Origin: Terriglobia bacterium
GTDB lineage: Bacteria; Acidobacteriota; Vicinamibacteria; Vicinamibacterales; CAVVIG01
Assembly: GCA_020073005.1 (NCBI GenBank)
Contig: JAIQFX010000045.1
Span: 1-61,671 of the forward strand
Length of the DNA stretch: 61,671 bases
Reading direction: 5' to 3'
Shown here piece by piece: positions 1 to 21,204 of this stretch. Within the stretch, counting starts at the first letter, position 1; every line of letters begins with the position of its first letter. The position numbers were made by a program, and so were the translations under genes. The notes beneath the pieces were generated by a model. It worked only from the letters and a program-made list of their open reading frames with translations, had not been told where the DNA came from and did not search any database.

Positions 1-1662
1 CTCGGCACGCCCGATCTCGTCGTGCGCATGCCCGAGCCGTACATCGTCCGCGCGAGCGGCCCGGACGACTTCCGGACGTTCGTCATTCCGATTCCGACGC
101 CGCGTCCCCGCTACGTGCGCGCGCTCGAGTTTCGTCCGGGCAACGCCCGCGTCGTGCATCACGCGAACCTCGGCATCGATCGCACGCAGTCCTCGCGGCA
201 GCTCGATCTGAAAGATCCGGAGCCCGGCTACGTCGGCGGCATGGTGCCTGACGCGCGGTATCCCGAGGGCCAGATGCTCGGCTGGACGCCGGGGCAGGCG
301 CCGCATCCGTCGCCGCCGGGGATGGCGTGGCGGCTGGAGCCCGGCAGCGATCTCGTGGCGCAACTCCATCTGCAGCCGACCGGCAAACCCGAGCCGCTGC
401 AGATCAGCGTTGGCATCTACTTCACCGATGACGCGCCGACGCGCAGCCCGCTCGGCCTGCGCCTTGGCAGCGAGACGATCGACATCCCCGCCGGCCGGCC
501 CGACTACGTCGTCGCCGACAGCTACGTGCTGCCTGTCGACGTCGACGTGCTGGCCGTGCAGCCGCACGCGCACAACCTCGCGCGCCGCATGGAAGCCGCC
601 GCGACCTTGCCCGACGGGACGACGCGATCGCTCATCGCGATCGACGACTGGGACTTCCGCTGGCAGGACGTGTATCGCTACACGACGCCGCTCCTGCTGC
701 CGAAGGGCACGCGGCTTTCGATGCGCTACACGTACGACAACTCCGCCGGCAACGACCGCAATCCGCACCGGCCGCCGGCGCGCGTGGTCTGGGGACAGAA
801 CACCACCGACGAAATGGGCGACCTGTGGATCCAGGTCGTGCCGCGCGACGCCGCGACGCTGACGCTGCTGACGCAGGATTTCCGGCGCAAGGCGCGCGCG
901 GAGGACCTGGCGGCGTACACCAGGCTCCTCTCGGGCGAGCCGGACAACCCGCTTCGGCACGACGCGGTCGCCGCCCTCTACCTCGACGACGGCCAGTTCG
1001 ATCAGGCCATCACGCATTTCCGCCGATCGCTCGCGCTGAATCCCGCGTCGGCGTCGACGCACTACAACCTCGGGTACGCGCTGTCAGTGAGCGGCCGGCA
1101 GGACGATGCCGCGGCCGAATTCGGCGAAGCGCTTCGCCTCGATCCCGACTACGCGCAGGCGCACAACAACCTGGGCGCGGTGCTGCAGTTGCTCGGCCGC
1201 GCGGACGAAGCGCTCGCGCATTACCGCCGCGCCGTCGCGCTCCGGCCCGACAACATCGAAGCGCGCGCCAACCTCGCGCAGCTGCTCTCGGCGCACGGAC
1301 TCGCGGCTGAAGCCGTGGGCGAATTTCAGCAGGTGCTCGCCGTGCGCGCCGATCATCCGCAGGCGCTCGCCGGGCTCGCGTGGGTGCGCGCGACGGCCGG
1401 CGACGATCGGCTTCGCAACCCGGCTGAAGCCGTTCAGCTGGCGGAGCGCGCGGCGGCCGTGGGCGGCCGTCGCGATCTGACGGTGCTCGATGCGCTGGCG
1501 GCCGCGTATGCGGCGGCGGGCCGGTACGACGAAGCCGTCGCGACCGTGCGATCCGGAATCGATCTCGCCGTCGCCACGGGCCGGCCGGCGGTCGTCGTCC
1601 AGCTGCGACAGCGGCTCGAGCTGTATCAACGAGGACAACCGTACCGGGTGCCGTCGCGCTGA
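1..1662 (+). CDS. PHM-like copper monooxygenase with TPR tail, 5' end outside window
   Basis: The gene is open from base 1, so its start lies upstream. The first visible residues (LGTPDLVV) align with about residue 138 of the paralogue at 5650, so a signal peptide and a heme-c site are expected outside the window. Counting codons from base 1, the copper ligands typical of PHM are all visible: His53-His54 (VVHHAN), His123 (LHLQ), His189/His191 (QPHAH) and Met272 in TTDEMGDLW. After about residue 310 come TPR repeats (for example HYNLGYAL, HNNLGAVL) to the C-terminus. Family knowledge: type II copper monooxygenases hydroxylate C-H bonds with O2; the substrate here is unknown. It is followed by a TonB receptor, which suggests a periplasmic role in handling imported or surface substrates. 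Confidence 0.85.
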   Translation, partial: LGTPDLVVRMPEPYIVRASGPDDFRTFVIPIPTPRPRYVRALEFRPGNARVVHHANLGIDRTQSSRQLDLKDPEPGYVGGMVPDARYPEGQMLGWTPGQAPHPSPPGMAWRLEPGSDLVAQLHLQPTGKPEPLQISVGIYFTDDAPTRSPLGLRLGSETIDIPAGRPDYVVADSYVLPVDVDVLAVQPHAHNLARRMEAAATLPDGTTRSLIAIDDWDFRWQDVYRYTTPLLLPKGTRLSMRYTYDNSAGNDRNPHRPPARVVWGQNTTDEMGDLWIQVVPRDAATLTLLTQDFRRKARAEDLAAYTRLLSGEPDNPLRHDAVAALYLDDGQFDQAITHFRRSLALNPASASTHYNLGYALSVSGRQDDAAAEFGEALRLDPDYAQAHNNLGAVLQLLGRADEALAHYRRAVALRPDNIEARANLAQLLSAHGLAAEAVGEFQQVLAVRADHPQALAGLAWVRATAGDDRLRNPAEAVQLAERAAAVGGRRDLTVLDALAAAYAAAGRYDEAVATVRSGIDLAVATGRPAVVVQLRQRLELYQRGQPYRVPSR

Positions 1663-1778
1663 ATCTCAAGGATGCATAAAGTCGATGCCAGCGATGCAAA
1701 AAGGTGATGTTCCGCGGCCGCGTTGATCCAACTTTCCGGTTCGAATAGTGGGAATCGTCAGGGATTGCAACGTCCCCA

Positions 1779-1807
1779 TTGACTCCCGGTACACGTCCGC
1801 GTAACCT
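1779..1807 (+). promoter_or_regulatory. putative sigma70-type promoter of the TonB receptor gene
   Basis: TTGACT at 1779-1784 and TAACCT at 1802-1807 are separated by 17 bp. They lie about 60 bp upstream of the receptor start. This is a by-eye match only. Confidence 0.35.
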
Positions 1808-1866
1808 CCCCGGGAACTCCGACCAACCCGACCTGTTTACACGCGTACTGCATGGAGGGGATAGGC

Positions 1867-4800
1867 ATGGCGAAGAGGATTCTGTTGTCGGTCTTTGCGC
1901 TGGCGTGTCTGCTGGCGCTGCCGACGACCGCTCGAGCGCAGAGCTCGTTCGCTGGCGTCGTCAAGGACGCCACCGGAGCGGTTCTCCCAGGTGTCACTGT
2001 CGAAGCGGCGAGCGATGTGTTGATCGAGAAAGTCCGCTCGGTCTCGACCGACGCGAACGGCGCGTACAGGATTGAGAACCTGCGTCCCGGCACCTACGTG
2101 CTGACGTTCACGCTGCCGGGCTTTGCGACGGTGAAACGGGACGGCGTCGAGCTCCAGTCGAACTTCACGGCGACCATCAATGCCGAGCTCAAGGTCGGCG
2201 CGGTCGAGGAAACCGTGACGGTGTCGGGGCAGTCGCCCGTCGTCGACACGCAGAGCAACAGCAAGGCGCAGGTACTCTCGCGTGACGTCCTCGACGCGGT
2301 GCCGAGCTCGCACACGTTTCAGTCGGTCGGCCAGCTCGTCGTCGGCGTGACGCTGACGGCGCCGGACGTCGGCGGATCGCAGGCGATGCAGCAGACCTAC
2401 TTCACGGTCCACGGTCTGGGCGCGGCCCAGACGTCGATCCTGAACGACGGGATGATCATCAACGGCCTGCAGGGCGACGGCGCCATCCAGACCTACTTCA
2501 ATGAGGGCACCAACCAGGAAATGGTGTACCAGACCGGCGGTGGCAACGTCGACTCACCCACCGGCGGCGTCAAGATCAATCTGATCCCGAAGGAAGGCGG
2601 CAACCGCTTCTCCGGCTCGTTGTTCGAGGGGTACGAGAGCGACAAGATCCAGTCGAGCAACATGACGGACTTCCTCTCGTCGCACGGCGTCACCTCGCTC
2701 GACAAGATCGGCACCTACAGCGACACCGACCTGACGCAGGGCGGACCGATCATGAAGGACAAGATGTGGTTCTTCGGGTCCCTGCGGCTCTTCACCGTGA
2801 ACAAGCCGATTGCCAGCACCTTCGTGGGCGATGGCACCAACGCCGGGGCATTGGCGTGCTACACGGGCGCCAAGTCGTGCGCGCAGGGCGTCGACCAGCA
2901 GCATCAGTACAGCGGATTGCTCCGGCTGACCTACCAGGTGAGCCCGCGCAACAAGCTGTCGGCGTACATGGACCGCATCCACAAGGTGCGCGGCGCGGCC
3001 ATGGGCCCAGGCGACGAGCAGACGACATCGTCGGTGCGGTGGAACTCTCCGCTGTACCTGACCAACAGCGTCAAGTGGGCGTCGACGGTGAGCAGCAAGT
3101 TGCTCGTCGAGGCCGGCTACTCGAGCAACATCGAGCGCTACAACAACCTGTACCCGGACGGCATCGAGCAGCCGACGCCGTTCGTGCCGGGCGCGACCAA
3201 CGTCAACCTGGCGAACAGCGCGTGGGCGTCGGTTGTCCGCCACGTGGACACCGTCAAGAACACTCAGTGGGGCGCATCGGCGGCCGAGACCGGTCAATAC
3301 CCGGACCGCTACAACGCGCAGGCCTCGGCGACCTACGTCACCGGCACGCACAGCGTGAAGTTCGGCTTCCAGGATTCGTGGGGCATCTTCAACCACACCT
3401 ATCGCGCCAACGGCGACCTGTACCAGAACTACCTGAGCGGCGTGCCGTCGACGGTGACGCTGCTCGACACGTCGGTGTGGTCGGCCGAGCGCCTGAACGC
3501 GGGTCTTGGGCTCTACGGCCAGGACATCTGGACGGTCAATCGCATGACGTTGACCATCGGCGGCCGCTGGGAATACGTCAGCGAGTCGGTCGTGGGCCAG
3601 CCGCAGCAGATCGGACGCTGGGCGAACATCCCGGCGTTCGGCGATGTCCAGATGCCGACCTGGAAGACGTTCTCGCCGCGCGTCGCGGCGGTGTTCGACG
3701 TCTTCGGCAACGGCAAGACGGCGGTCCGCGTCGGATTCAACCGGTACCAGGCGGCGGCGACGACGACGTTCGCCTCCCTCTACAACCCGTCGGCGATCGT
3801 GACGGCGTCGGGCGCGTGGACCGATCTCAACAAAGATGACGTGGCGCAGGGAACGCGCGGCTGCGTGTACCTCACCCCGGGCTGCGAGATCAACTTCTCC
3901 GCGGTCGCCAACAACTTCGGCGTGGTCTCGCTGGCGAGCCCGGATTCCGGCATCCAGCGGCCATACGTCGATCAGTTCAACGTCGGCGCGACGCGCGAGG
4001 TCCTGCGCGGCGTGTCCGTGTCGTTCGACTGGTTCCACAACAACAGCAAGAACATCTGGGAGCGGAACAACATCAACTGGACCGCCGCCAGCTATCGGCC
4101 GTTGACCGTGTTCAGCCCCATCGACGGCACGCCGATCACGATGTACGACTACGTGAGCTCGGCGGTCGCGAAGAACGTCGTGCAGGTGGACACCAACGAC
4201 ACCGGCCTGACGCAGAAGTACGACGCATTCGAGTTCAACTTCAACGCGCGGCTGCCAGGCGGTGTCCGGCTCTTCGGCGGTTCCGCCACGGATCGGACCA
4301 TCGCGAACACGTGCAGCGCGGCGGCGAACAACCCGAACTTCCTGATGACGATCGGCGGCGTGAACTACTGCGACCAGAGCCTGAGCAGCATCCCCTGGCG
4401 CACGCAGTACAAGCTCGCGGCGACCTATCCGCTGCCGTGGTATGGCGTCACGGTCAGCGGTTCGTATCAGGGGCTTCCGGGCTACCTGCTCGGCACGTCG
4501 GCCCTGACGGCCGGCGGCGCGGGCGCGCCGAACTTCACGCAGATGAGCGGTCTGGGCACGGCCTGGACCGTCACGGCGGGGACCAACTACGCGGTCTGCC
4601 CGGGCAACTCCGCCTCGCAGGGCTGCGTCGTCGGCCAGCGCGTCGTGCCGGCCTCGTTCGGCCTCGTGAGCTCGTCGCTGTCGGTGCCGCTCGTCGCGCC
4701 GGGCGTCGAGCTGACGCCGCGGTTGAACCAGGTGGACCTCTCGATCGCCAAGCGGATCAGCGTGGGCCACATCAAGATTGATCCGAAGATCGACATCTTC

Positions 4801-4950
4801 AACGCGTTCAACTCGAGCGACTACTTCAGCGTGCGCGGAACGACGTTCGCGCCGACCGCGGCGGCCGGCGTGTCGGGCGGCACGTATCTGTATCCGGGCA
4901 GCATCCTCCAGGGCCGCCTCGTCCGGCTCGGCGCCGTCGTGGCCTGGTAG
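1867..4950 (+). CDS. TonB-dependent receptor, Oar-like, with carboxypeptidase-regulatory domain
   Basis: Outer-membrane receptor of about 1027 residues. I chose the ATG at 1867 because GGAGGGG sits 8 bases upstream and it begins a clean signal peptide (MAKRILLSVFALACLLALP...ARAQ). Residues about 27-110 form a CarbopepD-regulatory-like beta-sandwich (SSFAGVVKDATGAVLPGVTV, then GAYRIENLRPGTYVLTF). A plug region and a long beta-barrel follow, ending in Trp (GAVVAW), the usual terminal aromatic for barrel assembly. Family knowledge: such receptors take up oligosaccharides, peptides or metal chelates using TonB energy. The next genes are secreted redox enzymes. A heptamer array and a strong terminator follow the stop codon, so the gene is probably transcribed alone. 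Confidence 0.93.
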   Translation: MAKRILLSVFALACLLALPTTARAQSSFAGVVKDATGAVLPGVTVEAASDVLIEKVRSVSTDANGAYRIENLRPGTYVLTFTLPGFATVKRDGVELQSNFTATINAELKVGAVEETVTVSGQSPVVDTQSNSKAQVLSRDVLDAVPSSHTFQSVGQLVVGVTLTAPDVGGSQAMQQTYFTVHGLGAAQTSILNDGMIINGLQGDGAIQTYFNEGTNQEMVYQTGGGNVDSPTGGVKINLIPKEGGNRFSGSLFEGYESDKIQSSNMTDFLSSHGVTSLDKIGTYSDTDLTQGGPIMKDKMWFFGSLRLFTVNKPIASTFVGDGTNAGALACYTGAKSCAQGVDQQHQYSGLLRLTYQVSPRNKLSAYMDRIHKVRGAAMGPGDEQTTSSVRWNSPLYLTNSVKWASTVSSKLLVEAGYSSNIERYNNLYPDGIEQPTPFVPGATNVNLANSAWASVVRHVDTVKNTQWGASAAETGQYPDRYNAQASATYVTGTHSVKFGFQDSWGIFNHTYRANGDLYQNYLSGVPSTVTLLDTSVWSAERLNAGLGLYGQDIWTVNRMTLTIGGRWEYVSESVVGQPQQIGRWANIPAFGDVQMPTWKTFSPRVAAVFDVFGNGKTAVRVGFNRYQAAATTTFASLYNPSAIVTASGAWTDLNKDDVAQGTRGCVYLTPGCEINFSAVANNFGVVSLASPDSGIQRPYVDQFNVGATREVLRGVSVSFDWFHNNSKNIWERNNINWTAASYRPLTVFSPIDGTPITMYDYVSSAVAKNVVQVDTNDTGLTQKYDAFEFNFNARLPGGVRLFGGSATDRTIANTCSAAANNPNFLMTIGGVNYCDQSLSSIPWRTQYKLAATYPLPWYGVTVSGSYQGLPGYLLGTSALTAGGAGAPNFTQMSGLGTAWTVTAGTNYAVCPGNSASQGCVVGQRVVPASFGLVSSSLSVPLVAPGVELTPRLNQVDLSIAKRISVGHIKIDPKIDIFNAFNSSDYFSVRGTTFAPTAAAGVSGGTYLYPGSILQGRLVRLGAVVAW

Positions 4951-4957
4951 GAAGAAG

Positions 4958-5006
4958 AGAAGTTAGAAGGTAGAAGTCAGAAGTCAGAAGTCAGAAGTCA
5001 GAAGTA
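4958..5006. repeat. seven tandem heptamers (AGAAGTC)
   Basis: Seven consecutive 7-bp units: two variant units, four identical AGAAGTC units and a final AGAAGTA, 49 bp in all. It starts 7 bp after the receptor stop codon and is much richer in A+T than its surroundings. Confidence 0.95.
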
Positions 5007-5009
5007 AGG

Positions 5010-5044
5010 AGGGCTGGGGGGTGATCCCCTCAGCCCTTTTTTTT
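5010..5044 (+). terminator. Rho-independent terminator after the TonB receptor
   Basis: An 11-bp GC-rich stem (GGGCTGGGGGG with CCCCTCAGCCC, one G-T wobble) closes a TGAT loop and is followed directly by eight T. This is the clearest intrinsic terminator in the window. It overlaps the upstream edge of the next gene's open frame and therefore argues for a start at 5048 or 5060. Confidence 0.9.
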
Positions 5045-5059
5045 GTTATGGTGTACGTC

Positions 5060-5653
5060 ATGTCCCGGTGGTTCGTCGCGCTGGCGTTGCTTGTCGGCGG
5101 GCTGCTCGCGTCCCCTGGGCAAATTGTCCACGCCGCTCCGCAGGTGCGCGTCCAGCAGGTCGATGGCGGCCACGCCGTCGATCCCCTCGCGGCGCCGGCC
5201 GGTTCGAAGGCGATCGTCTTTCTCTTTACCAGCACCGACTGTCCGATCTCCAACCGCTACGCGCCCGAAGTCCGCCGGCTCGCGACGACGTACGGGCCCA
5301 AGGGCGTCGTGTTCCGGCTGATCTACCCGAATCCCGCGGAGAACGCCAAGGGGATCCGCGAGCACATGGCGGCGTTCGCGTACGCGGGCGCGGCGCAGGC
5401 GTTCCGCGATCCGAAGCTCGACCTGGTCAAGTTCGTCGGCGCCACCATCACGCCCGAAGCGGCCGTCGTCGTCGACGGCAAGGTCGTCTATCGCGGCCGC
5501 ATCGACGATCGCTACGTCGATCTCGGTCTCGAGCGGCCCGCCGCGACGACGCACGATCTGGGTGAGGCGCTCGAGGCGGTGGTGACCGGCAGGAAGGTGC
5601 CGCATCCGACGACGCAAGCCGTCGGCTGCTACATCGCCGACTTCGCGCGATGA
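5060..5653 (+). CDS. secreted thioredoxin-fold (redoxin/AhpC-TSA-like) protein
   Basis: About 197 residues from the ATG at 5060; an ATG at 5048 is possible, and starts farther upstream would lie in the terminator. MSRWFVALALLVGGLLASPG looks like a signal peptide. The thioredoxin-fold core carries TSTDCPISNRYAPE with Cys61. The pattern is CPIS, so the resolving cysteine of a classical CxxC is absent; a second Cys lies near the C-terminus (AVGCYI). Family knowledge: proteins of this type occur next to, or fused to, cytochrome-c/copper monooxygenases in Acidobacteria and Planctomycetes. The stop codon overlaps the next start (ATGA, 5650-5653), so the two are translationally coupled. Likely role: thiol or peroxide chemistry, or redox partner, for the downstream enzyme. 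Confidence 0.85.
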   Translation: MSRWFVALALLVGGLLASPGQIVHAAPQVRVQQVDGGHAVDPLAAPAGSKAIVFLFTSTDCPISNRYAPEVRRLATTYGPKGVVFRLIYPNPAENAKGIREHMAAFAYAGAAQAFRDPKLDLVKFVGATITPEAAVVVDGKVVYRGRIDDRYVDLGLERPAATTHDLGEALEAVVTGRKVPHPTTQAVGCYIADFAR

Positions 5654-7623
5654 AAGTCGCGGCCGTCGCGCTCGCGTCGGTTACGCTGGCGACCGTAGTG
5701 CTCGCAACCGTGGCGTCCGGCTTCAGCCGGACCGAGCAAGTCTCGTCTCCCACCTACACCAAAGACATCGCCCCACTCATCGCGGATCGCTGTGGCATGT
5801 GCCACGACGCGGGCGGCGCCGCGCCGTTCGGCCTGCTCACGTACGCCGACGCCAAGCGTCACGCGACGCAGATCGCGACCGTCACGCGCAGCCGCTTCAT
5901 GCCGCCGTGGAAGGCGGATCCGGACAACGGTCCGTTCGTCGGACAGCATCCGCTGTCGGACGCCGAGATCGATCTCATCCGGCGCTGGGTGGACGGCGGC
6001 ACGGTCGAGGGCGATCCGCGCGACTTGCCCGCGCCGCGTCACTGGGCGGAAGGCTGGCGGCTCGGCCAGCCCGATCTGATCGTCACGCTGCCTGAGGCGT
6101 ACACGCTGCAGGCCGAAGGGACGGACGTGTTCCGCATCTTCGTCATCCCGCTGCCCGTGACGAAGACGCGCTTCGTGCGCGGCCTCGAGTTCCGGCCGGG
6201 GAATGCGAAAGTCGTCCACCACGCGAACATCCGCGTCGACAAGACCGCCGCGTCGCGCGCGCTCGACGCAGCGGATCCGGGGCCGGGCTACAGCGGTCTG
6301 ATCCTGCGGTCGGCGGATTATCCGGAAGGACACTTTCTCGGCTGGACGCCGGGACAGGTCGCACCGCTGCTGCCGAAGGATCTCAGCTGGCGTCTGGATC
6401 CGAAAACGGATCTGGTGATCGAGACGCACATGCAGCCGAGCGGCAAGAAGGAAAGCGTGCAGCCGTCGATCGGCCTGTACTTCAGCGACACGCCGCCCAC
6501 GCGCACGCCAGCGATGCTGCGGCTCGGCCGGCAGACGATCGACATTCCCGCCGGCGAGAAGCAGTACATCGTGACCGACTCGTACACGCTGCCCGTGGAC
6601 GTCGAGGTCGAAGCGCTGCAGCCGCACGCGCACTACCGCGCGCGCGAGGTCCAGGGCGACGCGACGCTGCCGGACGGGACGAAGAAGCCGCTCATCCACA
6701 TCGCCGACTGGGACTTCCGCTGGCAGCACGTCTTCCAGTACGAGACGCCGCTGCGCTTGCCGAAAGGCACGACGCTGTCCATGCGCTGGGTGTACGACAA
6801 CTCCGCCGCCAACACGCGCAACCCCGAGCGTCCGCCGAAGCGGGCGCAGTGGGGACAGCGATCGTCGGACGAGATGGGCGATCTCTGGATGCAGGTGCTG
6901 ACGCGCAACGAGCCGGATCTCGTGACGCTGACGCGCCAGTTCCGCGCGAAGGTGGCCGCCGAGGACGTCAACGGCTACGAAGTCGAGATCGAGAAGCATC
7001 CGAACGACATCGGGCTCCACGACGATGCCGCGCTGCTGTACCTCGAGGTGGGCCGTCCCGAGAACGCCGTCGCGCATTTCCAGAAGTCGCTCGCGCTGAA
7101 GGGTGGTTCCGCGCCCGCGCACTACAACCTCGGGACCGCGCTGTCGGTGGCCGGCCGGCTCGACGAGGCCGTCTACGAGTACCGTCAGGCGATTCAGATC
7201 GACGCGTCGTACGCCAACGCGCACAACAATCTGGGCAGCGTGCTGCTGTCGCAGGGCAAGACCGCCGAGGCCGCGCGCGAATTCCGTGAAGTGATCCGGC
7301 TGCAGCCGCAGTCGGCGTCGGGCCTGGCGAACCTGGCGTGGGTGCTCGCGACCGCGTCGCGTCCGGCGGACCGTGACGCGACGCAGGCGGTTGACCTCGC
7401 CGAGCGCGTCGTCGATCTCACGGGCCGCCGTGACGCGCGAGCATTGGACGTGCTGGCCGCGGCCTATGCGTCGGCGGGGCGGTTCGACCGCGCGCAGGAC
7501 GCCGCCAGCGCCGCGCTCCGGCTGCTGCCCGCGGAGCCCCTGGCCTCCGAAATCCGCCAGCGGCAGGACCTCTACCGCCAGGGCCGCCCGTACGTCGCGC
7601 AAGATCCACAATCCAGACGCTGA
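5650..7623 (+). CDS. heme-c / PHM-like copper monooxygenase with TPR tail
   Basis: Protein of 657 residues with three visible parts. Residues 1-30 are a signal peptide whose last part (ASGFSRTE) comes from an in-frame palindromic repeat. Residues 35-125 are a cytochrome-c-like domain with one heme site CGMCH (Cys48, Cys51, His52). Residues about 140-420 are a PHM-like double beta-sandwich with every copper ligand position: His190-His191 (CuH), His260 (ETHMQ), His326/His328 (QPHAH, CuM) and Met409 in SSDEMGDLW, close to the SDEM context of animal PHM. Residues about 430-650 are TPR repeats. Electrons could arrive through the fused heme rather than ascorbate (inference). It is coupled to the redoxin gene by a 4-bp overlap and is a paralogue of the genes at 1, 7755 and 19576. 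Confidence 0.9.
   Translation: MKVAAVALASVTLATVVLATVASGFSRTEQVSSPTYTKDIAPLIADRCGMCHDAGGAAPFGLLTYADAKRHATQIATVTRSRFMPPWKADPDNGPFVGQHPLSDAEIDLIRRWVDGGTVEGDPRDLPAPRHWAEGWRLGQPDLIVTLPEAYTLQAEGTDVFRIFVIPLPVTKTRFVRGLEFRPGNAKVVHHANIRVDKTAASRALDAADPGPGYSGLILRSADYPEGHFLGWTPGQVAPLLPKDLSWRLDPKTDLVIETHMQPSGKKESVQPSIGLYFSDTPPTRTPAMLRLGRQTIDIPAGEKQYIVTDSYTLPVDVEVEALQPHAHYRAREVQGDATLPDGTKKPLIHIADWDFRWQHVFQYETPLRLPKGTTLSMRWVYDNSAANTRNPERPPKRAQWGQRSSDEMGDLWMQVLTRNEPDLVTLTRQFRAKVAAEDVNGYEVEIEKHPNDIGLHDDAALLYLEVGRPENAVAHFQKSLALKGGSAPAHYNLGTALSVAGRLDEAVYEYRQAIQIDASYANAHNNLGSVLLSQGKTAEAAREFREVIRLQPQSASGLANLAWVLATASRPADRDATQAVDLAERVVDLTGRRDARALDVLAAAYASAGRFDRAQDAASAALRLLPAEPLASEIRQRQDLYRQGRPYVAQDPQSRR
5715..5732. 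repeat. family A palindrome inside a signal-peptide coding region
   Basis: GTCCGGCTTCAGCCGGAC: 7-bp arms and a TTCA loop, read in frame as part of SGFSRT. Confidence 0.93.
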
Positions 7624-7738: not shown

Positions 7739-7754
7739 TTCAGAAGGAGTCACC

Positions 7755-9134
7755 ATGTCGGACTCGAAGATGTTGAAGACCGGTCTGGTCCTCGTCGCAT
7801 TCAGCGTCCTGCCGCGCCTCGCGATGGCGGCGGATTCTCCCGCGCCGACGTTCACCAAGGACGTCGCCCCGATCTTCCAGGCGAAGTGCGAAGCCTGCCA
7901 CCGCCCGGACAACATGGCGCCCATGTCGCTGCAGACCTACGAACAGGCGCGGCCGTGGGCCAAGTCGATCGCGCAGCGCGTCGGCGCGCATCAGATGCCG
8001 CCGTGGCACATCGACAAGACGGTCGGCATCCAGAAGTTCAAGAACGATCGGTCGCTGACCGACGATCAGGTCGACACGATCGTGAAGTGGGTCGCGGCCG
8101 GCGCGCCGAAGGGCGATCCGAAGGACATGCCCGCGCCGAAAGTGTGGACCGACGACACGAAGGAATGGGCGATGGAGGCCAAGTACGGCCAGCCCGACCT
8201 CCTCGTGAAGTCGCCGGAGTACACGATGCCGGCGGTCGCGCAGGACGCCTGGTGGCGGCCGAACGTGCCGACCAACATCACCGAGCCGCGCTGGGTGCGC
8301 GCGATCGAAATCCGTCCGGTCGGCAAGAACGCCCGCAAGATCACGCATCACGCGCTCGCGTTCCTGCGGCAGACCGAGAAGGACGTTCCGAAGGAGCTCG
8401 TCAGCAACGATCCGAACGTCGCGGGCGAGGGCCTCTTCATGGAATGGGCCGTCGGCAAGAACGGCGACGAGATGCGTCCGGACTCCGGCCGTCTGATGCT
8501 GCCGGGCTCGAGCATCACCTGGGAGATGCACTACCACGCGGTCGGCGAAGAGATCTCCGCGCACACCGAGCTCGCGGTCTGGTTCTATCCCAAGGGCCAG
8601 GAGCCGAAGCATCGCGAAGTGCTCGCGCTCTTCAACACGTTCTCGGCGCCTCCGGGCGTGGCGCTGCCCAACGCGCAGCCGCTCGACATCGCGCCGAACA
8701 GCATCACGACGACCGAAAGCTTTGTCACGCTCCGCGAGAACGCTCGAATCGAGAACTTCCAGGCCCACATGCACCTGCGCGGCAAGGGCATGTCGATGGA
8801 GGCGATCTATCCGGACGGCAAGCGCGAGACGCTGAGCCAGGTGACGGACTTCAACTTCAACTGGCACAACATGTACATCTACGCGGACGATGTGGCGCCG
8901 CTGCTCCCGAAGGGCACGATGCTCCACTTCATCGCGTGGTACGACAACACGCGCAACAATAAGTCGAACCCCGATCCGGATCAGTGGGTCGGCTGGGGCG
9001 ACCGCACCGTGGACGAGATGGGCCACGCGTGGATCAACATCACGTACTACAACGACGCCGACTTCAAGGCGGAGCAGGCCAAGCGCGCGTCGACGAAGAC
9101 GACGACGACCGCGGCCGCGCAGCAGGATCGGTAG
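7755..9134 (+). CDS. heme-c / PHM-like copper monooxygenase, short form
   Basis: 459 residues from the ATG at 7755, preceded by AAGGAG. A signal peptide ending near AMAADS is followed by a cytochrome-c-like domain (CEACH: Cys45, Cys48, His49) and a PHM-like domain. Copper ligands: His198-His199 (ITHHA), His259 (WEMHYH), His338/His340 (AHMHLRGK) and Met422 in TVDEMGHAW. WEMHY and AHMHLRGK closely echo the VHYG and HTHHLGK motifs of animal PHM. It has no TPR tail, unlike the previous gene; it ends in a Thr/Ala-rich tail. A secreted Ig-like protein follows at 9232 after two hairpins. Substrate unknown. Confidence 0.9.
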   Translation: MSDSKMLKTGLVLVAFSVLPRLAMAADSPAPTFTKDVAPIFQAKCEACHRPDNMAPMSLQTYEQARPWAKSIAQRVGAHQMPPWHIDKTVGIQKFKNDRSLTDDQVDTIVKWVAAGAPKGDPKDMPAPKVWTDDTKEWAMEAKYGQPDLLVKSPEYTMPAVAQDAWWRPNVPTNITEPRWVRAIEIRPVGKNARKITHHALAFLRQTEKDVPKELVSNDPNVAGEGLFMEWAVGKNGDEMRPDSGRLMLPGSSITWEMHYHAVGEEISAHTELAVWFYPKGQEPKHREVLALFNTFSAPPGVALPNAQPLDIAPNSITTTESFVTLRENARIENFQAHMHLRGKGMSMEAIYPDGKRETLSQVTDFNFNWHNMYIYADDVAPLLPKGTMLHFIAWYDNTRNNKSNPDPDQWVGWGDRTVDEMGHAWINITYYNDADFKAEQAKRASTKTTTTAAAQQDR

Positions 9135-9207: not shown

Positions 9208-9231
9208 ACGCATTTGAGGATGACGAATTCC

Positions 9232-10131
9232 ATGAAAACAGAGTGGGTTGCTCTGAGTGTGGCCTGCGCGTTAGGCGCGGGCGTGTTCGTGCACGTCGGC
9301 GCGCAGGGACCGCAGGGTACAGGGCAGACGACGCCGAGCGGATTGCCGCTCTCGCTCGGATTGCGTGAGAAGGGCAGCAGCGTCACGCCCGCGTTCGAGG
9401 GCTGGTACCACAACAAGGACGGCAGCGTCAGCGTGCTCGTCGGATATCTGAATCGCAACACGAAGCAGGAATTCGACATTCCCGTCGGTCCGAACAATCA
9501 CGTCGATCCCGGCGGCCCCGATCAGGGGCAGCCGACGCATTTCCAGCCCGGCCGGCAGTGGGGCGTGTTCTCGATCAAGGTGCCGAAGGATTTCGGCGAC
9601 AAGAAGCTGGCGTGGACGCTGACCGCCAACGGCTTCACCAACTCGATCACGCTGCACACCAAGCCCGAGTACATCATCGAGCCGTACGAGGACGCGGCGA
9701 GCAAGAACCAGCCGCCCGTGATCAAGTTCGAGCCCAACGGCAAGGCCGTGACCGGTCCGCCGAGCGGCATCGCGGCCACGTACACGGCGGCGGTGAACGC
9801 GCCGCTCACGCTCGACGCGTGGGTCACGGACGAGCCGCCGAAGCTCAACGTGCAGACGTTTCCGGGATTCACGCCTCCGCCGCCCGGCGTGAAGTGGAGC
9901 GTGTTCCGCGGACCGGCCCCAGCGAGCGGAGCGAGCGCTGGCAACCTGGTCAAGATCGATCCCGTCAGCCCCAAGATCGACAAGGACACCGCCAAGACAT
10001 CAACGACCGCCACGTTCAGCGCGGCCGGCGACTACATCCTGCGCCTGCAGGCCAACGACTCGACCGGTGAAGGTGGCGGCGGATTCCAGTGCTGCTGGAC
10101 GAACGCGCACGTGCGTGTGACCGTGAAATGA
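9232..10131 (+). CDS. secreted protein of unknown function, Ig-like C-terminus
   Basis: About 299 residues; ATG 9232 chosen over ATG 9220 because GAGGA then sits at a usable distance. The signal peptide (MKTEWVALSVACALGAGVFV) is followed by a region with GWYHNKDGSVSVLVGYLNRN, a long beta-rich middle and a C-terminal sandwich ending AGDYILRLQANDS...CCWTNAHVRVTV, which looks like a PKD/Ig-type fold. I do not recognise a catalytic motif. Its place just after a copper monooxygenase suggests a co-expressed extracellular partner. Residues near PAPASGASAGN derive from a small in-frame palindrome (9919-9941). Confidence 0.8.
   Translation: MKTEWVALSVACALGAGVFVHVGAQGPQGTGQTTPSGLPLSLGLREKGSSVTPAFEGWYHNKDGSVSVLVGYLNRNTKQEFDIPVGPNNHVDPGGPDQGQPTHFQPGRQWGVFSIKVPKDFGDKKLAWTLTANGFTNSITLHTKPEYIIEPYEDAASKNQPPVIKFEPNGKAVTGPPSGIAATYTAAVNAPLTLDAWVTDEPPKLNVQTFPGFTPPPPGVKWSVFRGPAPASGASAGNLVKIDPVSPKIDKDTAKTSTTATFSAAGDYILRLQANDSTGEGGGGFQCCWTNAHVRVTVK
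9919..9941. repeat. small palindrome inside coding region
   Basis: CCAGCG and CGCTGG arms enclose AGCGGAGCGAG, read in frame as an Ala/Ser/Gly-rich stretch. Confidence 0.6.
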
Positions 10132-11613: not shown

Positions 11614-12298
11614 ATGCCGCTGTTGTCCGAGAGCGCCGACATCCTTCCCATCCACCGCAGGACTCTGGCCTTCTCCTTCATCGGCTGGATTAGCGACTTC
11701 TACGACCTGCTCCTGCTGACGTTCGTCGTCTCGTCGACGTCGCTCGTCAAGGATCTGGCGCTGTCGCGCGACGAAGTCGCCGTCCTGCTCGGCTTCAAGA
11801 CGATCTGGCTGCCGACGTACTTCCACGAAATCCGCGGGCTGTCGCTCGGGGACTCCGCGTGGCTGCTCTTCATGGATCAGGTCGGCTCGGTCATCGGCTT
11901 CGGCTATGGAGCGACTACTTCGGCCGGCGTCCAAGTGTCACCGCGTTCACGCTGCTCAAAGCCGTCGGGATGACGATGGTCACGCTCGGCTGGACGCTGG
12001 CGGGCGGGTTCACGCCGACGATGTTCGTGTTCATGTTCATCGTCGGACTCGGGGAGGGAACTGGGGCTGCATCGGGCCGTTGATCAACGAGGTCTTCCCG
12101 ACGTCGGTGCGCGCCGCCGCGCTCGGTATCATCTACAATGTCGCGCGCGGCGTGCAGTTCGCGGCGCCGGTGGTCATCGCGTTCGTCGCGGCGCGGTCGA
12201 GCTTCGGCGCCGGTATCGCGCCGGCGGTGCCGTTTTCATTGCTCGCTGCCGCGACGGTCTGGGCCCTGCCCGAAACGAAAGGCGTGCGATTGCAATAA
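11614..12298 (+). pseudogene. decayed MFS transporter (metabolite:H+ symporter type)
   Basis: Homology runs through three frames. 11614 to about 11905 gives the N-terminus and a middle helix (MPLLSESADILPIHRRTLAF, then LGFKTIWLPTYFHEIRGLSL). Another frame gives SDYFGRRPSVTAFTLLKAVG, and a third gives GCIGPLINEVFPTSVRAAAL through PETKGVRLQ. The join DEVAVLLG-FKTIWLP looks like an internal deletion of several helices, since the usual cytoplasmic MFS loop is missing. Frame changes lie near 11905 and 12060. The product cannot be a working 12-helix carrier. It diverges from atoE, with starts 34 bp apart. Confidence 0.85.
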
Positions 12299-13723: not shown

Positions 13724-13760
13724 GGGCGGTGCCTCCAGTGGATGGTAGGATACCGCGCAA

Positions 13761-15515: not shown

Positions 15516-15536
15516 CGCGAGCCTTTCAGGCGAGCG
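15511..15536. repeat. family B repeat supplying a stop codon
   Basis: The TAG of CGTAGCGC ends the quinoprotein gene (15513-15515). The repeat runs to within 3 bp of the convergent gene's stop. Confidence 0.92.
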
Positions 15537-15538
15537 AA

Positions 15539-16729: not shown

Positions 16730-16767
16730 TCCGCGTCATTATCCGATGAAGTCCGGCCCGTTTGCGC

Positions 16768-16795
16768 GTTGACGCCGGGGACATGCGGGTATAAT
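16768..16795 (+). promoter_or_regulatory. promoter giving a nearly leaderless mRNA
   Basis: GTTGAC (16768-16773) or TTGACG (16769-16774) lies 15-16 bp before a perfect TATAAT (16790-16795). The ATG at 16804 is only 8 bases after the -10 box, so the 5' leader would be one to three bases long. Confidence 0.55.
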
Positions 16796-16803
16796 TCCGC
16801 CCG

Positions 16804-17409
16804 ATGAAAACGACGCTGAGTCTCGCCGGCCTTGGCGTGACGCTCCTGGTCGGCGTGCTCACGGCGCAAACGCCCCAACAGCCGATGCCGAAGGGCCAGA
16901 TGCCGGATCTCGGCCGCCCGACGCGTCCAGGCGACGTCGCCCCGCCGCTCGATTTCAGCGCGTACTTTCCCGGCGCGTGGACCTTCGAGTGGGACGTGCC
17001 GGACGGTCCGCTCGGACCGTCGGGCCGCATCACCGGCACGACGATCTACAAGAGGATCGACGACCGCTTCTTCGAGGCCGACACGGCCGCGACCGGCCCG
17101 GCCGGTCCGTTCAAGCTGCACGAAACGATCGGGTACAACCGCGACGAGAAGTTCCTCTCGCGCTACGTGACCGACAGCCGCGGCTACGCGTACCTGCAGT
17201 CCTCGCCCGTCAGCGGCGACGCCGGCGGCATCTACTACATCTACTTCGAGAGCTCGCCGTTCACGTACAACGGCCACACGATCCGCATCAAGCACAACCT
17301 GCGCCTGCTCTCGCCGCTGAACTATCGCGTGGCGATCAGCGTGTCCGACAACGGCGGTCCGTTCGTGAACTACGGCAATCCGTGGTGGCGAAAGGATGTG
17401 GGGAAATGA
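16804..17409 (+). CDS. secreted protein of unknown function, lipocalin-like
   Basis: 201 residues. Signal peptide MKTTLSLAGLGVTLLVGVLTAQ. The body is beta-rich with PGAWTFEWDVPDGPLGPSGR...FFEADTAATGPAGPFKLHET, resembling DUF1579-type or calycin barrels. No catalytic motif is seen. Its stop codon overlaps an ATG of the PAL-like gene, and AGGAGGGG for that gene lies across the junction, so the two form an operon transcribed from the nearly leaderless promoter upstream. It could be an accessory factor for the PAL-like propeller. Confidence 0.8.
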   Translation: MKTTLSLAGLGVTLLVGVLTAQTPQQPMPKGQMPDLGRPTRPGDVAPPLDFSAYFPGAWTFEWDVPDGPLGPSGRITGTTIYKRIDDRFFEADTAATGPAGPFKLHETIGYNRDEKFLSRYVTDSRGYAYLQSSPVSGDAGGIYYIYFESSPFTYNGHTIRIKHNLRLLSPLNYRVAISVSDNGGPFVNYGNPWWRKDVGK

Positions 17410-17420
17410 GGAGGGGATTC

Positions 17421-18566
17421 ATGCGACGGGCTCTTGCGACATTGTTGATTGGCGCGGCGGTCGTGACGCTGTCGGTACTGTCCGGCTTCAGCCGGACCGT
17501 CTTCGCCCAGGGCGACGGCGGCTACACGCTCGTCGCCAACTGGCCGCATCTGCCGGCCGCCATGTACTTCGGATTGAAGGAACCGCCGCCACCGCCGGCC
17601 GAGCGTGATGCGCAGGCCGCGGCGCGGCGCGCGAGCGGAAGAGGTGCCGGTGGTGCGAGAGGTCCCGGTGGCGCGGGGCAGAACAACGCGATGGGCCCGA
17701 CGAATCAGCCGGGCATCTCCGGCCTCGCGATCGATCAGCACGATCACATCTACGTCTTCAACCGCGGCGTGAAGCCGGTGATGGTGTTCGACACCGACGG
17801 CAACTTGATCCTGTCTGGCGCCGACCAGGTGATCAACGGCAAGAGGATCAATCCGTCGTGGCAGCACTCGGGCGGCGTGGACTGGGACGGCAACGTCTAC
17901 GTCATCGAGCGCGACGCGCACCGCATCGTCAAGCTGAGCCCGAAGCTGGACAAGTTCCTCATGCAGCTCGGCACGACGAACGAGAAGGGCGACGACGCGA
18001 CGCACTTCAATCTGCCGTCGGGCATCGCGACTCTTCATAACGGCAACATCGTCGTCACGGACGGCTACGGCAACAATCGTGTGGTGCTCTTCGACAAGAA
18101 CGGCAAGTTCATCAAGCAGGTTGGGAAGGGCGCCGGCGGTCCGACCGACAAAGGCACGGGGCCCGGCGAGTGGAATCTGCCGCACAAGATTGCCGTCGAC
18201 GCGAAGGAGAACCTCTACATCATCGACCGTGAAGGCCATCGCCTCGAGGTGTTCGACAAGGACCTCAACTACATCCGCGAGATTCGCAACGACTGGAATC
18301 CGTGGGACGTCAACATCTCGCGCAAGGGCACGGAGAGCTTTGGCTGGATCGCCGATCACAAGGACGAGCGCGTCCTGAAGTTCAATCTTGCGGACGGCAA
18401 GATCCTCGCGATGTGGGGCAAGCAGGGCTGGGGCCCGAGCGAGTTCGACTGGGTCCACGGGATCGTCGTCGACTCGAAGGGCGCCGTCTACGCGGCGGAT
18501 ACCTACGGTCAGCGCATTCAGAAGTTCGTGCGGAGCAGCGGCGCCTCAACGGCCGGTCAGCGCTGA
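17421..18566 (+). CDS. NHL-repeat protein of the peptidyl-alpha-hydroxyglycine alpha-amidating lyase (PAL) type
   Basis: 381 residues from ATG 17421, preceded by GAGGAGGGG. The signal peptide contains SGFSRT from a family A repeat; residues 55-95 are a Pro/Gly-rich linker. The propeller keeps the PAL active-site pattern: Arg115 (VFNRGVKPV), His149 (QHSGGVDWDG), Tyr216 in DGYGNNR (DGYCNSR in animal PAL), His255 (NLPHKIAVD), Arg270 (IDREGHRLEVF) and His346 (WVHGI). The three histidines match the zinc ligands of PAL, which cleaves hydroxyglycine intermediates to an amide and glyoxylate. The Met before the last zinc His of animal PAL is Trp here. NHL propellers can have other jobs, but the residue set is specific. 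Four PHM-like proteins are encoded nearby. Confidence 0.85.
   Translation: MRRALATLLIGAAVVTLSVLSGFSRTVFAQGDGGYTLVANWPHLPAAMYFGLKEPPPPPAERDAQAAARRASGRGAGGARGPGGAGQNNAMGPTNQPGISGLAIDQHDHIYVFNRGVKPVMVFDTDGNLILSGADQVINGKRINPSWQHSGGVDWDGNVYVIERDAHRIVKLSPKLDKFLMQLGTTNEKGDDATHFNLPSGIATLHNGNIVVTDGYGNNRVVLFDKNGKFIKQVGKGAGGPTDKGTGPGEWNLPHKIAVDAKENLYIIDREGHRLEVFDKDLNYIREIRNDWNPWDVNISRKGTESFGWIADHKDERVLKFNLADGKILAMWGKQGWGPSEFDWVHGIVVDSKGAVYAADTYGQRIQKFVRSSGASTAGQR
17480..17497. repeat. family A palindrome inside a signal-peptide coding region
   Basis: Identical GTCCGGCTTCAGCCGGAC, in the same reading frame (SGFSRT) as at 5715. Confidence 0.93.
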
Positions 18567-18568
18567 TA

Positions 18569-18594
18569 CGTAGCGCGAGCCTTTCAGGCGAGCG
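18569..18594. repeat. family B repeat between convergent genes
   Basis: Lies 3 bp after the PAL-like stop. On the minus strand it supplies the final Leu-Ala codons and TGA stop (18584-18586) of the convergent gene. Confidence 0.92.
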
Positions 18595-19162
18595 ATGATC
18601 GAAGGCGCATGACCAGCGGCACGATCAGCAGTGCGACGACGACGAGGACCGACGCGAGCGTGCCACTGATCGGCCAGGCGCGAAACTGGCCGGAGAGATC
18701 GATCGTGCCGGACCATGCATCCCCGGCGATCTCTTCGACGACGATGCGGCCGTCGGCGCGGCGGATGGTCATCGGATACGGATCGATCACGAGGCCGTAG
18801 TACCACCGCAGCGTGCGCGCGTCGATCGGCATGCGGCCGCGCATGCGGTAGACGCCGAGGTTCGGAAGATCGCCGGGCACCGCAGGCGGCGGCGCGATGT
18901 ACTCGACCGACGCGGGACGGATCTCGTGGCCGTCCACCCACAGGACGATGCGGTCGCTGAACGGACCGGTGAAGCGCTCGAGCCGCAGTTTGAGCCAGTC
19001 GGGATCGTTGGCGACGTCGAGAACGAACGCGCCGTCGCGCGAGAAGGTGAGCGAGACGCGCGTGCGCTCCAGGTCATGGGCGGATGCCGCCGCCGCGACG
19101 GCGACGAAGACCGCCACGAAGAATGAACGCAGAGCCACGACGAACGCTATGATACGCGCCAT
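18584..19162 (-). CDS. exported, C-terminally membrane-anchored protein of unknown function
   Basis: 192 residues. An N-terminal hydrophobic signal (FFVAVFVAVAAAASA) is followed by HDLERTRVSLTFSRDGAFVLDV, a beta-rich domain, then one C-terminal transmembrane segment (LASVLVVVALLIVPLVMRL). I do not recognise the family beyond a general resemblance to small metal- or ligand-binding periplasmic domains. It ends SSLA with a stop from the family B repeat. Its ATG (19160-19162) overlaps the ATG of the divergent gene (19161-19163). Confidence 0.7.
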   Translation of the reverse strand: MARIIAFVVALRSFFVAVFVAVAAAASAHDLERTRVSLTFSRDGAFVLDVANDPDWLKLRLERFTGPFSDRIVLWVDGHEIRPASVEYIAPPPAVPGDLPNLGVYRMRGRMPIDARTLRWYYGLVIDPYPMTIRRADGRIVVEEIAGDAWSGTIDLSGQFRAWPISGTLASVLVVVALLIVPLVMRLRSSLA

Positions 19163-19532
19163 GAACGCGGTCGTTTTTGTCCTGGGCCTGACGGCGATTG
19201 CCGCCGCTCAGACCCCATCGCAGAAGATCGACATCGTCAGCGTGACGGGATGCCTGCGCGAGACGACGCCGAATACGTGGACGCTCGAGAACGCGACGGA
19301 CCCGGTCCCCAGCAGCGCCAACGCGCCGCCGGCGAAAGACATCCCCGCGACGCCTCCCGTCGGGAAGAATCAGTACCGTCTGATTGGCGTGTCCGAGTTC
19401 AACCTGACGGCGCACAGAGGCCACACGGTCATCATCAAAGGCCTGTTTATCAAGGCCACTCCGATGAGCCGCGTGAACATGACGTCGGTCACGATGGTGG
19501 CCGCGTCGTGCGCGCCGGCTCCAGCGAGATAG
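19161..19532 (+). CDS. small secreted protein of unknown function
   Basis: 123 residues from ATG 19161; ATG 19149 is an alternative. Signal peptide MNAVVFVLGLTAIAAAQ. The mature part (IDIVSVTGCLRETTPNTWTL...GKNQYRLIGV...HRGHTVIIKGLFIKA) looks like a small beta-barrel often seen in Acidobacteria secretomes. Conserved features are VTGCL and the YRLIG...GHTVxIKG core. It precedes the fourth PHM-like gene by 43 bp and may be co-transcribed. Confidence 0.72.
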   Translation: MNAVVFVLGLTAIAAAQTPSQKIDIVSVTGCLRETTPNTWTLENATDPVPSSANAPPAKDIPATPPVGKNQYRLIGVSEFNLTAHRGHTVIIKGLFIKATPMSRVNMTSVTMVAASCAPAPAR

Positions 19533-19575
19533 GCTAAACTAGGGCACTTTTCTCCGCTTACTTGGGGAGGGTTTC

Positions 19576-21204
19576 ATGAAGCGTCTCGTTCCCGTGCTCG
19601 CCGGGACCTTGGCCGTGTCCGCCGCAACGTTAATCACCGGGCTCACCGGCGTCAGCGTGAAGGCTGGCGCGGCGCCGGTCGCGCCCACCTTCGCGAAGGA
19701 CGTCGCGCCGATCGTCTACAACAAGTGCACGATGTGCCATCGCGCGGGCGAAGTCGCGCCGATGGCGTTCATGACGTACGAGGACGTGCGGCCGTGGGCC
19801 AAGGTGATCAAGACCAAAGTGATGGCGCGCGAGATGCCGCCGTGGGGCGCCGATCCCGAGCACTCGCTGAAGTTCCGCAACGATCGCAGCCTGAGCCGCG
19901 CCGAGATGGACACCATCGCCGCCTGGGTCGATGGCGGCGCGCCGCGCGGCAACGACGCCGACATGCCGCCCGCGCCGAAGTTCGCCGAAGGCTGGACCGC
20001 GGGCCGCGAGCCGGACGCGATTCTCGAGATGCCGGTCGACTTCGCGATTCCTGCTGAAGGCGAGCTCGGCGTCCAGATGTTCTATTCGAAAGTGCCGTGG
20101 AGCGAAGACAAGTTCGCGGAGACGCTGGAGATTCGTCCCGGCAATCGATCGGTCGTCCACCACGCCGGCGTCTTCGTCGTCGACATTCCTGAAGGCGCGC
20201 ACATCGACGAGCACGGCCGTCTCGTGAACGCGGAAGGCAAGGCGTCGAACGATCGCGGTCAGGGCCTCGCGGGTCGCGCGGACGTGACGGCGCTGCCGGG
20301 CGCGAACAAGCTGCTGTCGTGGGTGCCGGGCCGCGGCGTCGATCAGCATCGCGCCGACATCGGCAAGCGCATTCCCGCCGGCAAGTACATCAACTGGCAG
20401 ATGCACTACAACCCGAACGGCAAGCCGACCTCCGATCGGTCGCGCCTCGGGATCTGGTTCAACAAGCAGAACGTGACGCATGAGCTGCTCATCCGTCAGG
20501 CGGGCGATCCTCTGGCGACGACCAAGGGCGGGCTCTCGCTGTATCGCGCCGAAGGGAAGGAAGTCGAATACACCGCCGACGAGGGCAGCACGCGCCGCCG
20601 CAGCAAGACGCCGGACATCCCGCCGTACGCCGAGGACTGGTCGCTGACGGGCATCACGCCGGTGACGGAAGACATCACGCTCTACGCGATGTCGCCGCAC
20701 ATGCACCTGCGCGGCAAGAGCCTGAAGTGGGTGATCGTGTACCCGGACGGCCGCGAGCAGACGATTCTGGATGTGCCGAAGTTCGACTTCAACTGGCAGA
20801 TCGAGTACGAGCTCGAGACGCCGCTGAAGATTCCGGCCGGCAGCAAGATCCTCGGCATCGGCAAGTACGACAACTCGCCGAAGAACAAGTGGAACCCGGC
20901 GCCGAATCTGCCGGTGTACTGGTCGGAGCAGAGCTGGGACGAGATGTATCAGCCGTTCACGCTCTACTCGGTCGACAGCCAGGTCGGCCTCCGCTCGGTC
21001 GCTGTCGCACGCGCGTCGACGAGCAGCTTAGGTGGAGTCCTTGTGTACGCGGATCCAACGCCAGTGCTTATCTCAGCGGCACGGATCGCGCAAGGACGAA
21101 GTCGCCGCGGAAGACTCGCTCCGCCCGACTTCCGGCAACGGTTCAGTCGGCGCGCTCAGACGGCACTGACGCCCGGCAGTGCCGCGCGTCCATACCCTCG
21201 GTAG
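19576..21204 (+). CDS. heme-c / PHM-like copper monooxygenase with repeat-derived C-terminus
   Basis: 542 residues; GGGGAGGG precedes ATG 19576. Signal peptide, then a cytochrome-c-like site CTMCH (Cys51, Cys54, His55) and a PHM-like domain with His195-His196 (VVHHAG), His277 (WQMHYN), His375/His377 (PHMHLRGK) and Met457 (SWDEMY). From about residue 470 the sequence (VGLRSVAVARAS...) is translated from a truncated copy of a dispersed element, so the last 70 or so residues are not family sequence and the original end has been lost. Closest in-window relative: the gene at 7755. The catalytic ligands lie upstream of the insertion, so activity may be kept. Confidence 0.88.
   Translation: MKRLVPVLAGTLAVSAATLITGLTGVSVKAGAAPVAPTFAKDVAPIVYNKCTMCHRAGEVAPMAFMTYEDVRPWAKVIKTKVMAREMPPWGADPEHSLKFRNDRSLSRAEMDTIAAWVDGGAPRGNDADMPPAPKFAEGWTAGREPDAILEMPVDFAIPAEGELGVQMFYSKVPWSEDKFAETLEIRPGNRSVVHHAGVFVVDIPEGAHIDEHGRLVNAEGKASNDRGQGLAGRADVTALPGANKLLSWVPGRGVDQHRADIGKRIPAGKYINWQMHYNPNGKPTSDRSRLGIWFNKQNVTHELLIRQAGDPLATTKGGLSLYRAEGKEVEYTADEGSTRRRSKTPDIPPYAEDWSLTGITPVTEDITLYAMSPHMHLRGKSLKWVIVYPDGREQTILDVPKFDFNWQIEYELETPLKIPAGSKILGIGKYDNSPKNKWNPAPNLPVYWSEQSWDEMYQPFTLYSVDSQVGLRSVAVARASTSSLGGVLVYADPTPVLISAARIAQGRSRRGRLAPPDFRQRFSRRAQTALTPGSAARPYPR
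20983..21189 (+). repeat. dispersed MITE-like element, copy 1 (left end missing)
   Basis: Matches copies 2 and 3 from GTCGGCCTCCGCTCGGT onward, through GTGTACGCGGATCCAACGCC, to a degraded right end CCGGCAGTGCCG. The left terminal repeat is absent. The element overlaps and forms the 3' end of the copper monooxygenase gene. Confidence 0.9.

What the first reader, a model, noticed from the sequence alone, without database searches (positions are those of the whole stretch)
1..21204. Four PHM-like copper monooxygenases and a PAL-like lyase: a possible bacterial two-step amidation-type system
Seen: proteins at 1, 5650, 7755 and 19576 each keep the HH, single H, HxH and Met (DEM) ligand pattern of peptidylglycine alpha-hydroxylating monooxygenase, down to phrases like SSDEM and HMHLRGK. 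The protein at 17421 keeps the three zinc His, the Tyr in DGY-N-R and both Arg of the amidating lyase. Known: in animals PHM and PAL act in sequence to turn glycine-extended peptides into amides plus glyoxylate. Inference: this genome may run a comparable hydroxylation/lyase pair on peptides, N-acylglycines or similar compounds, using heme c as electron donor. Malate synthase and a glyoxylate aminotransferase are also in the window and could use released glyoxylate.
Basis: partly seen in the sequence, partly recalled or inferred. Interest (0 to 1): 0.82.

Follow-up and report, generated by a model that had tools for sequence, protein, structure and literature searches.

The report
Bacterial heme-copper oxygenase and lyase set
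A soil bacterium carries exported copper enzymes fused to a heme electron carrier, together with zinc-type lyases, that look like the two halves of the animal enzyme that finishes peptide hormones; the two kinds tend to occur together, but what they act on is unknown and is probably not hormone-like peptides.

Summary
All four PHM-like proteins keep the six copper ligands. The three with an intact N-terminus also carry a heme c domain (CxxCH plus MPPW). The protein at 17421 keeps all six PAL catalytic residues. AlphaFold models match rat PHM and human DBH (Z 21.4 and 21.7; next unrelated fold 8.4) and rat PAL (Z 34.5, tied with non-enzymatic NHL propellers, so the residues carry that claim).

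This genome encodes 18 intact PHM-like and at least 13 site-intact PAL-like genes. The block DUF1579 / PAL / HupE / PHM (16804-21204) is conserved in relatives: PHM lies near the PAL orthologue in 10 of 12 informative loci. In a second phylum, Gemmatimonadota, 48 of 49 PHM-bearing genomes also carry PAL. PAL sits beside a HupE/UreJ permease gene in 66 of 112 cases (0.4 expected).

Best reading: an exported two-step oxidative cleavage set, with a heme c-fed dicopper hydroxylase followed by a zinc-type lyase. Peptide amidation is not supported. The substrate-carboxylate arginine of PHM is absent in all 37 aligned sequences, and malate synthase is not part of the conserved block. PHM-only genomes also exist. 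I class it as a new variant of a known kind.

The parts
1..1662 (+). P0001: PHM-like dicopper domain plus C-terminal TPRs; N-terminus (expected heme c domain) cut off by the contig start
   Evidence: ligands HH, H, HxH, DEM; TPR
1852..4950 (+). TonB-dependent-receptor/Oar-like protein with N-terminal carboxypeptidase-regulatory-like domain (by reading); a homologue recurs beside PHM-TPR genes in some relatives
5066..5653 (+). redoxin/thioredoxin-like protein (subthreshold Pfam), overlapping the next gene by 4 bases; order redoxin then PHM-TPR kept in relatives
5650..7623 (+). P0004: heme c (CGMCH, MPPW) + PHM-like + TPR
7755..9134 (+). P0005: heme c (CEACH, MPPW) + PHM-like
9229..10131 (+). 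exported protein without Pfam match, conserved beside P0005-type PHM genes
16804..17409 (+). exported DUF1579-like protein; conserved beside PAL and/or the P0010-type PHM
17421..18566 (+). PAL-like six-bladed propeller with signal peptide; R115, H149, Y216, H255, R270, H346 = rat R533, H585, Y654, H690, R706, H786
18584..19162 (-). HupE/UreJ-like gene, here shortened to its exported N-terminal part plus one membrane helix; relatives carry a full HupE_UreJ_2 domain
19576..21204 (+). P0010: signal peptide + heme c (CTMCH, MPPW) + PHM-like; C-terminal tail after residue ~470 differs from all orthologues

Best explanation
The locus encodes an exported two-step oxidative cleavage set. A PHM/DBH-fold dicopper monooxygenase, fed with electrons by its own N-terminal heme c domain instead of ascorbate, hydroxylates a carbon next to a heteroatom. 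A PAL-type propeller lyase then splits the hydroxylated product (N-C or O-C cleavage), as PAL does to alpha-hydroxyglycine. A HupE/UreJ-type permease beside the PAL gene probably serves metal supply. Several parallel copies probably handle different small substrates, more likely for nutrition than for peptide signalling. Shown: gene content, residues, fold matches, conserved neighbourhood, co-occurrence. Inferred: metal binding, electron transfer from heme to copper, the sequential reaction on one substrate, substrate class, permease role.
For: PHM side: six copper ligands and heme motif invariant in 37 sequences; profile hits only PHM, DBH and cytochromes; model pLDDT 85.6, Z 21.4 to rat PHM (263 residues, 2.8 A) and 21.7 to DBH, next unrelated 8.4. 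PAL side: all six catalytic positions kept in 26 of 31 family members; rat PAL is matched end to end as one colinear domain; Z 34.5. Coupling: block DUF1579/PAL/HupE/PHM conserved, a P0010-type PHM near the PAL orthologue in 10 of 12 loci with enough sequence (nine of them at 70-94% identity to P0010, one at 54%); other PHM types also lie beside other PAL genes; 8 clusters within 5 kb against 2.3 expected in Acidobacteriota; both present in 26 of 197 Acidobacteriota genomes with odds ratio 34, genera outside the window's order odds ratio 18, p 5e-4; 48 of 49 PHM genomes carry PAL in Gemmatimonadota, also when only PQQ-positive genomes are counted.
Against: PHM-like genes occur without strong PAL: 16 of 42 Acidobacteriota genomes, one (G009) with at least 12 copies. 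PAL occurs without PHM (26 Gemmatimonadota genomes) and its closest partner is HupE, not PHM. PHM-PAL adjacency in Gemmatimonadota is at the chance level (2 against 1.9). Fisher tests ignore relatedness within groups. M784 and D787 of PAL are not kept. The PAL fold match is tied with non-enzymatic NHL propellers. Atomic distances in the models could not be measured.
Confidence: 0.5

Rival explanations
1. PHM-like and PAL-like proteins are both active enzymes but work on different substrates. They co-occur because both families expanded in the same soil lineages with many exported oxidases.
For: Large independent paralogous families; PHM-only and PAL-only genomes; no PHM-PAL adjacency above chance in Gemmatimonadota; PHM genes of this genome are mostly not next to a site-intact PAL gene.
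Against: Near-complete PHM-implies-PAL pattern in Gemmatimonadota that survives restriction to PQQ-positive genomes; conserved block at the window locus and adjacency of other PHM types with PAL.
Confidence: 0.3
2. A bacterial peptide or N-acylglycine amidation system: PHM hydroxylates a C-terminal glycine, PAL releases the amide and glyoxylate, which malate synthase consumes.
For: Both catalytic sites intact; same order of steps as in PAM (PMC6529398); malate synthase 7 kb away.
Against: Arg240-equivalent never Arg in 37 sequences, DEM+2/+4 variable; family as close to DBH as to PHM; malate synthase never in the conserved neighbourhood; no short peptide gene was sought or seen; tens of paralogues argue for diverse substrates.
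Confidence: 0.12
3. The PAL-like proteins are non-catalytic NHL propeller scaffolds or sensors, and only the PHM-like proteins are enzymes.
For: Fold equally close to Thin and TRIM71 NHL domains; some tandem copies have lost Tyr and His; the lyase step can be spontaneous above neutral pH (PMC6529398).
Against: Three zinc His, Tyr and both Arg kept together in 26 of 31 and in 13 own-genome copies at about 30% identity, which a scaffold would not need.
Confidence: 0.08

Closest known systems
Rat/animal PAM: PHM domain (1PHM, 6ALA) and PAL domain (3FVZ)
   Same: Both folds; CuH (HH, H) and CuM (HxH, M) ligands; PAL R533, H585, Y654, H690, R706, H786; exported compartment; two enzymes found together
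   Different: Separate genes; heme c domain fused to PHM; many paralogues; Arg240-equivalent absent; PAL M784 and D787 changed; HupE permease partner
Human dopamine beta-hydroxylase (4ZEL)
   Same: Same dicopper fold and ligands, equal structural score (Z 21.7)
   Different: DBH has an N-terminal DOMON domain (from memory), here heme c; DBH works alone on a phenylethylamine
NHL-repeat propellers (Thin, TRIM71, PknD; ScyF NCBIfam model)
   Same: Six-bladed propeller; sequence similarity in the repeats
   Different: Those lack the PAL metal and Tyr/Arg set (from family knowledge for Thin/TRIM); the ScyF model matches only below its cut-off
LPMO-cytochrome fusions (cellobiose dehydrogenase type partners; from memory)
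   Same: Idea of a heme domain feeding a copper monooxygenase outside the cell
   Different: Unrelated folds and a b-type, not c-type, heme

Membership tests
PHM/DBH dicopper monooxygenase superfamily | Two-domain PHM fold | tested here: met
   Z 21.4 to 6ala_C over 263 residues, 21.7 to 4zel; Foldseek E about 1e-13
PHM/DBH dicopper monooxygenase superfamily | CuH ligands H107, H108, H172 and CuM ligands H242, H244, M314 | tested here: met
   Invariant in 37 sequences; five His aligned to rat PHM by profile; the CuH ligand list is in PMC6123673, the CuM list from memory; M314 by the shared DEM motif and by the model range matched to the PHM chain
PHM/DBH dicopper monooxygenase superfamily | Copper bound and O2-dependent hydroxylation | not testable with these tools
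   Needs protein
PHM proper (peptidylglycine-specific) | Arg240 that binds the substrate carboxylate (role from memory of the 1OPM structure) | tested here: not met
   Aligned position Q/S/M/E/A/L/Y/H/I/F/T, never R, in 37 sequences
[quoted passage not shown]
   Z 34.5 to 3fvz, tied with other NHL propellers
[quoted passage not shown]
   All six in the window protein and 25 relatives; roles from knowledge of 3FVZ
[quoted passage not shown]
   W344 and G347 in the window protein; variable in the family; how far these two define PAL is uncertain, so I call the protein PAL-like, not PAL
PAM-like two-step system | Hydroxylase product is the lyase substrate | not testable with these tools
   Only indirect: synteny and co-occurrence
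Heme c domain | CxxCH and distal Met | tested here: met
   CxxCH and MPP invariant in 37 sequences; role of the MPPW Met as ligand is inferred

The most novel reading that the evidence does not exclude
A widespread, undescribed bacterial counterpart of PAM: exported, self-reducing heme c-dicopper hydroxylases that feed products to separate PAL-type zinc lyases with a dedicated HupE-type permease, used by soil bacteria for oxidative N- or O-dealkylation, and possibly related to the ancestor of the animal amidating enzyme.
Probability: 0.35. Interest if true: 0.87.

Novelty: new variant of a known kind. Interest (0 to 1): 0.72.

Why it matters
PAM is treated in the literature held here as a eukaryotic enzyme traced back to the last eukaryotic ancestor (PMC6529398, PMC6919629), with no mention of bacterial pairs found. 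Intact PHM-like and PAL-like sites together in two bacterial phyla would move the pairing of these chemistries into bacteria. They would also supply heme-fused, soluble relatives in which electron entry to a non-coupled dicopper site, a long-debated step, could be tested directly, and point to an overlooked route of organic nitrogen or carbon turnover in soil.

Tried and rejected
Paper searches for bacterial PHM/PAL, Acidobacteria, Planctomycetes, Solibacter, DBH homologues and amidating lyase found nothing on such systems; the PAL structure paper itself was not held. Glyoxylate link through malate synthase rejected as part of the module: no homologue in any related locus. A fusion of NHL and another domain in the 904-aa frame on contig C57 was only a long open frame. 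The PHM beside it has an NHL partner that lost Tyr and His, so it is not a PAL pair. Promoter and terminator scan uninformative. PQQ dehydrogenase served as a control family: it is common (122 of 150) and does not explain the PHM-PAL pattern.

Full report
Observation. The window is a whole contig (G000:C132, 61,671 bases). Four PHM-like proteins lie at 1-1662, 5650-7623, 7755-9134 and 19576-21204, and a PAL-like protein at 17421-18566, all on the + strand. The first is cut by the contig start, so its N-terminus cannot be read. All four keep HH, H, HxH and DEM. The three with a readable N-terminus have CxxCH followed by MPPW. Pfam recognises the PHM-like part only below its cut-off, and NCBIfam not at all.

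Paralogues. The finding is one corner of a much larger set. In the same genome 18 proteins keep all six copper ligands. One more has lost them, one is a fragment at a contig edge, and every one with a readable N-terminus has the heme motif. Of 28 matches to the PAL-like protein, at least 13 keep Arg533, His585, Tyr654, His690, Arg706 and His786 (rat numbering) at about 30% identity.

Folds. A profile of 37 heme-PHM proteins from this and related genomes finds only PHM and DBH (E about 4e-6) and a few cytochromes among PDB sequences. The model of P0010 has mean pLDDT 85.6. It matches DBH 4zel at Z 21.7 and rat PHM 6ala_C at Z 21.4 (263 residues, 2.8 A), while the next unrelated fold (PNGase F type) is at 8.4. 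The PAL model (pLDDT 80.7) matches rat PAL 3fvz at Z 34.5 but Thin and TRIM71 NHL domains about equally well, so the fold alone does not show a lyase. The case for PAL rests on the joint conservation of six site residues (26 of 31 relatives) and on rat PAL being matched end to end as one domain, where most other propellers match in pieces.

Differences from true PHM and PAL. The residue aligned with rat PHM Arg240, which holds the substrate carboxylate (role from memory), is never Arg in 37 sequences, and the positions two and four after the Met ligand vary. The proteins are as close to DBH as to PHM. In PAL, Met784 and Asp787 are replaced. A glycine-extended peptide is therefore not the expected substrate.

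Neighbourhood. The block DUF1579-like gene, PAL, HupE/UreJ-like gene (opposite strand), heme-PHM of P0010 type is conserved in related Acidobacteriota. Among 16 PAL orthologue loci found in a collection of 84,980 species genomes, a P0010-type PHM lies within 10 kb in 10 of the 12 Acidobacteriota-like loci that have enough sequence, and a HupE relative is near in 14 of 16. Two Gemmatimonadota orthologues keep PAL and HupE without PHM nearby. In one relative (G103) the P0010 orthologue lies beside a different PAL gene and the PAL orthologue beside DUF1579 elsewhere. Other PHM types also lie next to PAL genes: PHM-TPR, redoxin, PHM-TPR, HupE and two or three PAL genes in G103 and G143, and PAL with a P0005-type PHM and the 9229-type gene in G069 and G095.

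Co-occurrence. In 197 Acidobacteriota genomes PHM-like genes occur in 42 and strong PAL matches in 33 (counted from the table), both in 26, against 7 PAL-only and 16 PHM-only (odds ratio 34; by genus outside the window's order 18, p 5e-4). In 150 Gemmatimonadota genomes 48 of the 49 with strong PHM matches also have PAL, against 26 of 101 without PHM. This holds within genomes that carry PQQ dehydrogenases, used as a control (48, 1, 26, 47). Relatedness is not corrected for. Physical PHM-PAL linkage is above chance in Acidobacteriota (8 clusters within 5 kb, 2.3 expected, some of them orthologous) but not in Gemmatimonadota. The strongest linkage found is PAL with HupE: 66 of 112 Gemmatimonadota PAL genes have one within 4 kb, 0.4 expected. 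It also appears in a second PAL group of this genome (contig C158).

Interpretation. Shown: two enzyme families with intact sites, heme c fused to the copper enzyme, conserved blocks and co-occurrence. Inferred: the heme domain replaces ascorbate as electron source; the hydroxylase acts next to a heteroatom and the lyase splits the product; HupE serves metal supply. I put about 0.5 on this paired-enzyme reading, 0.3 on both being enzymes that work separately, 0.12 on true peptide or N-acylglycine amidation and 0.08 on non-catalytic PAL-like scaffolds. Against strict pairing stand G009, with at least 12 PHM-like genes and no strong PAL, and the PAL-only genomes.

Novelty. No paper on such bacterial systems was found in the held library; reviews place PAM in eukaryotes (PMC6529398; PMC6919629). 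The folds and sites are known, while the heme c fusion, the scale in soil bacteria and the HupE partner appear undescribed in what I could search. I file it as a new variant of a known kind.

Noticed in passing
18584-19162 (-): HupE/UreJ-like gene shortened to 192 aa; its closest relative (L075, 70% identical) and L055/L056 carry longer forms, with a HupE_UreJ_2 domain in L055. Natural truncation or assembly error not decided.
   Followed up: partly
about 20985-21204: C-terminal tail of P0010 after 'VDSQ' shares nothing with its orthologues, which end within about 15-20 residues there; possible frameshift or recombination.
   Followed up: partly
L040 (G000:C158:1-7500): Tandem array of four or five PAL-like genes next to a divergent HupE gene at the contig start.
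   Followed up: partly
L059:13557-14642, L060:3365-4492: PAL-like copies that lost the Tyr and zinc His sit beside intact copies in the same cluster, as if pseudoenzymes.
   Followed up: no
Gemmatimonadota genomes, e.g. G259:C33, G271:C13, G241:C42: HupE-PAL gene pair (mostly divergent) in 59 genomes, also in genomes without PHM; a strong, apparently undescribed gene association.
   Followed up: partly
L055, L056, L061, L063, L071, L080, L084, L086: Recurrent neighbours near PAL/PHM genes: DUF1587/1592/1588/1585 cytochrome proteins, DUF1552 proteins, ankyrin-repeat proteins.
   Followed up: no
9229-10131: Exported protein with no Pfam match that follows P0005-type PHM genes in several relatives (L044, L061, L062, L064).
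   Followed up: no
11614-12298: Transporter-like reading frame broken by a stop; longer open frame in L075, so probably a decayed gene or sequence error here.
   Followed up: no
G009 (L069, L070): At least 12 PHM-like genes, four or more in tandem, in a genome with no strong PAL match: counterexample to strict pairing.
   Followed up: partly
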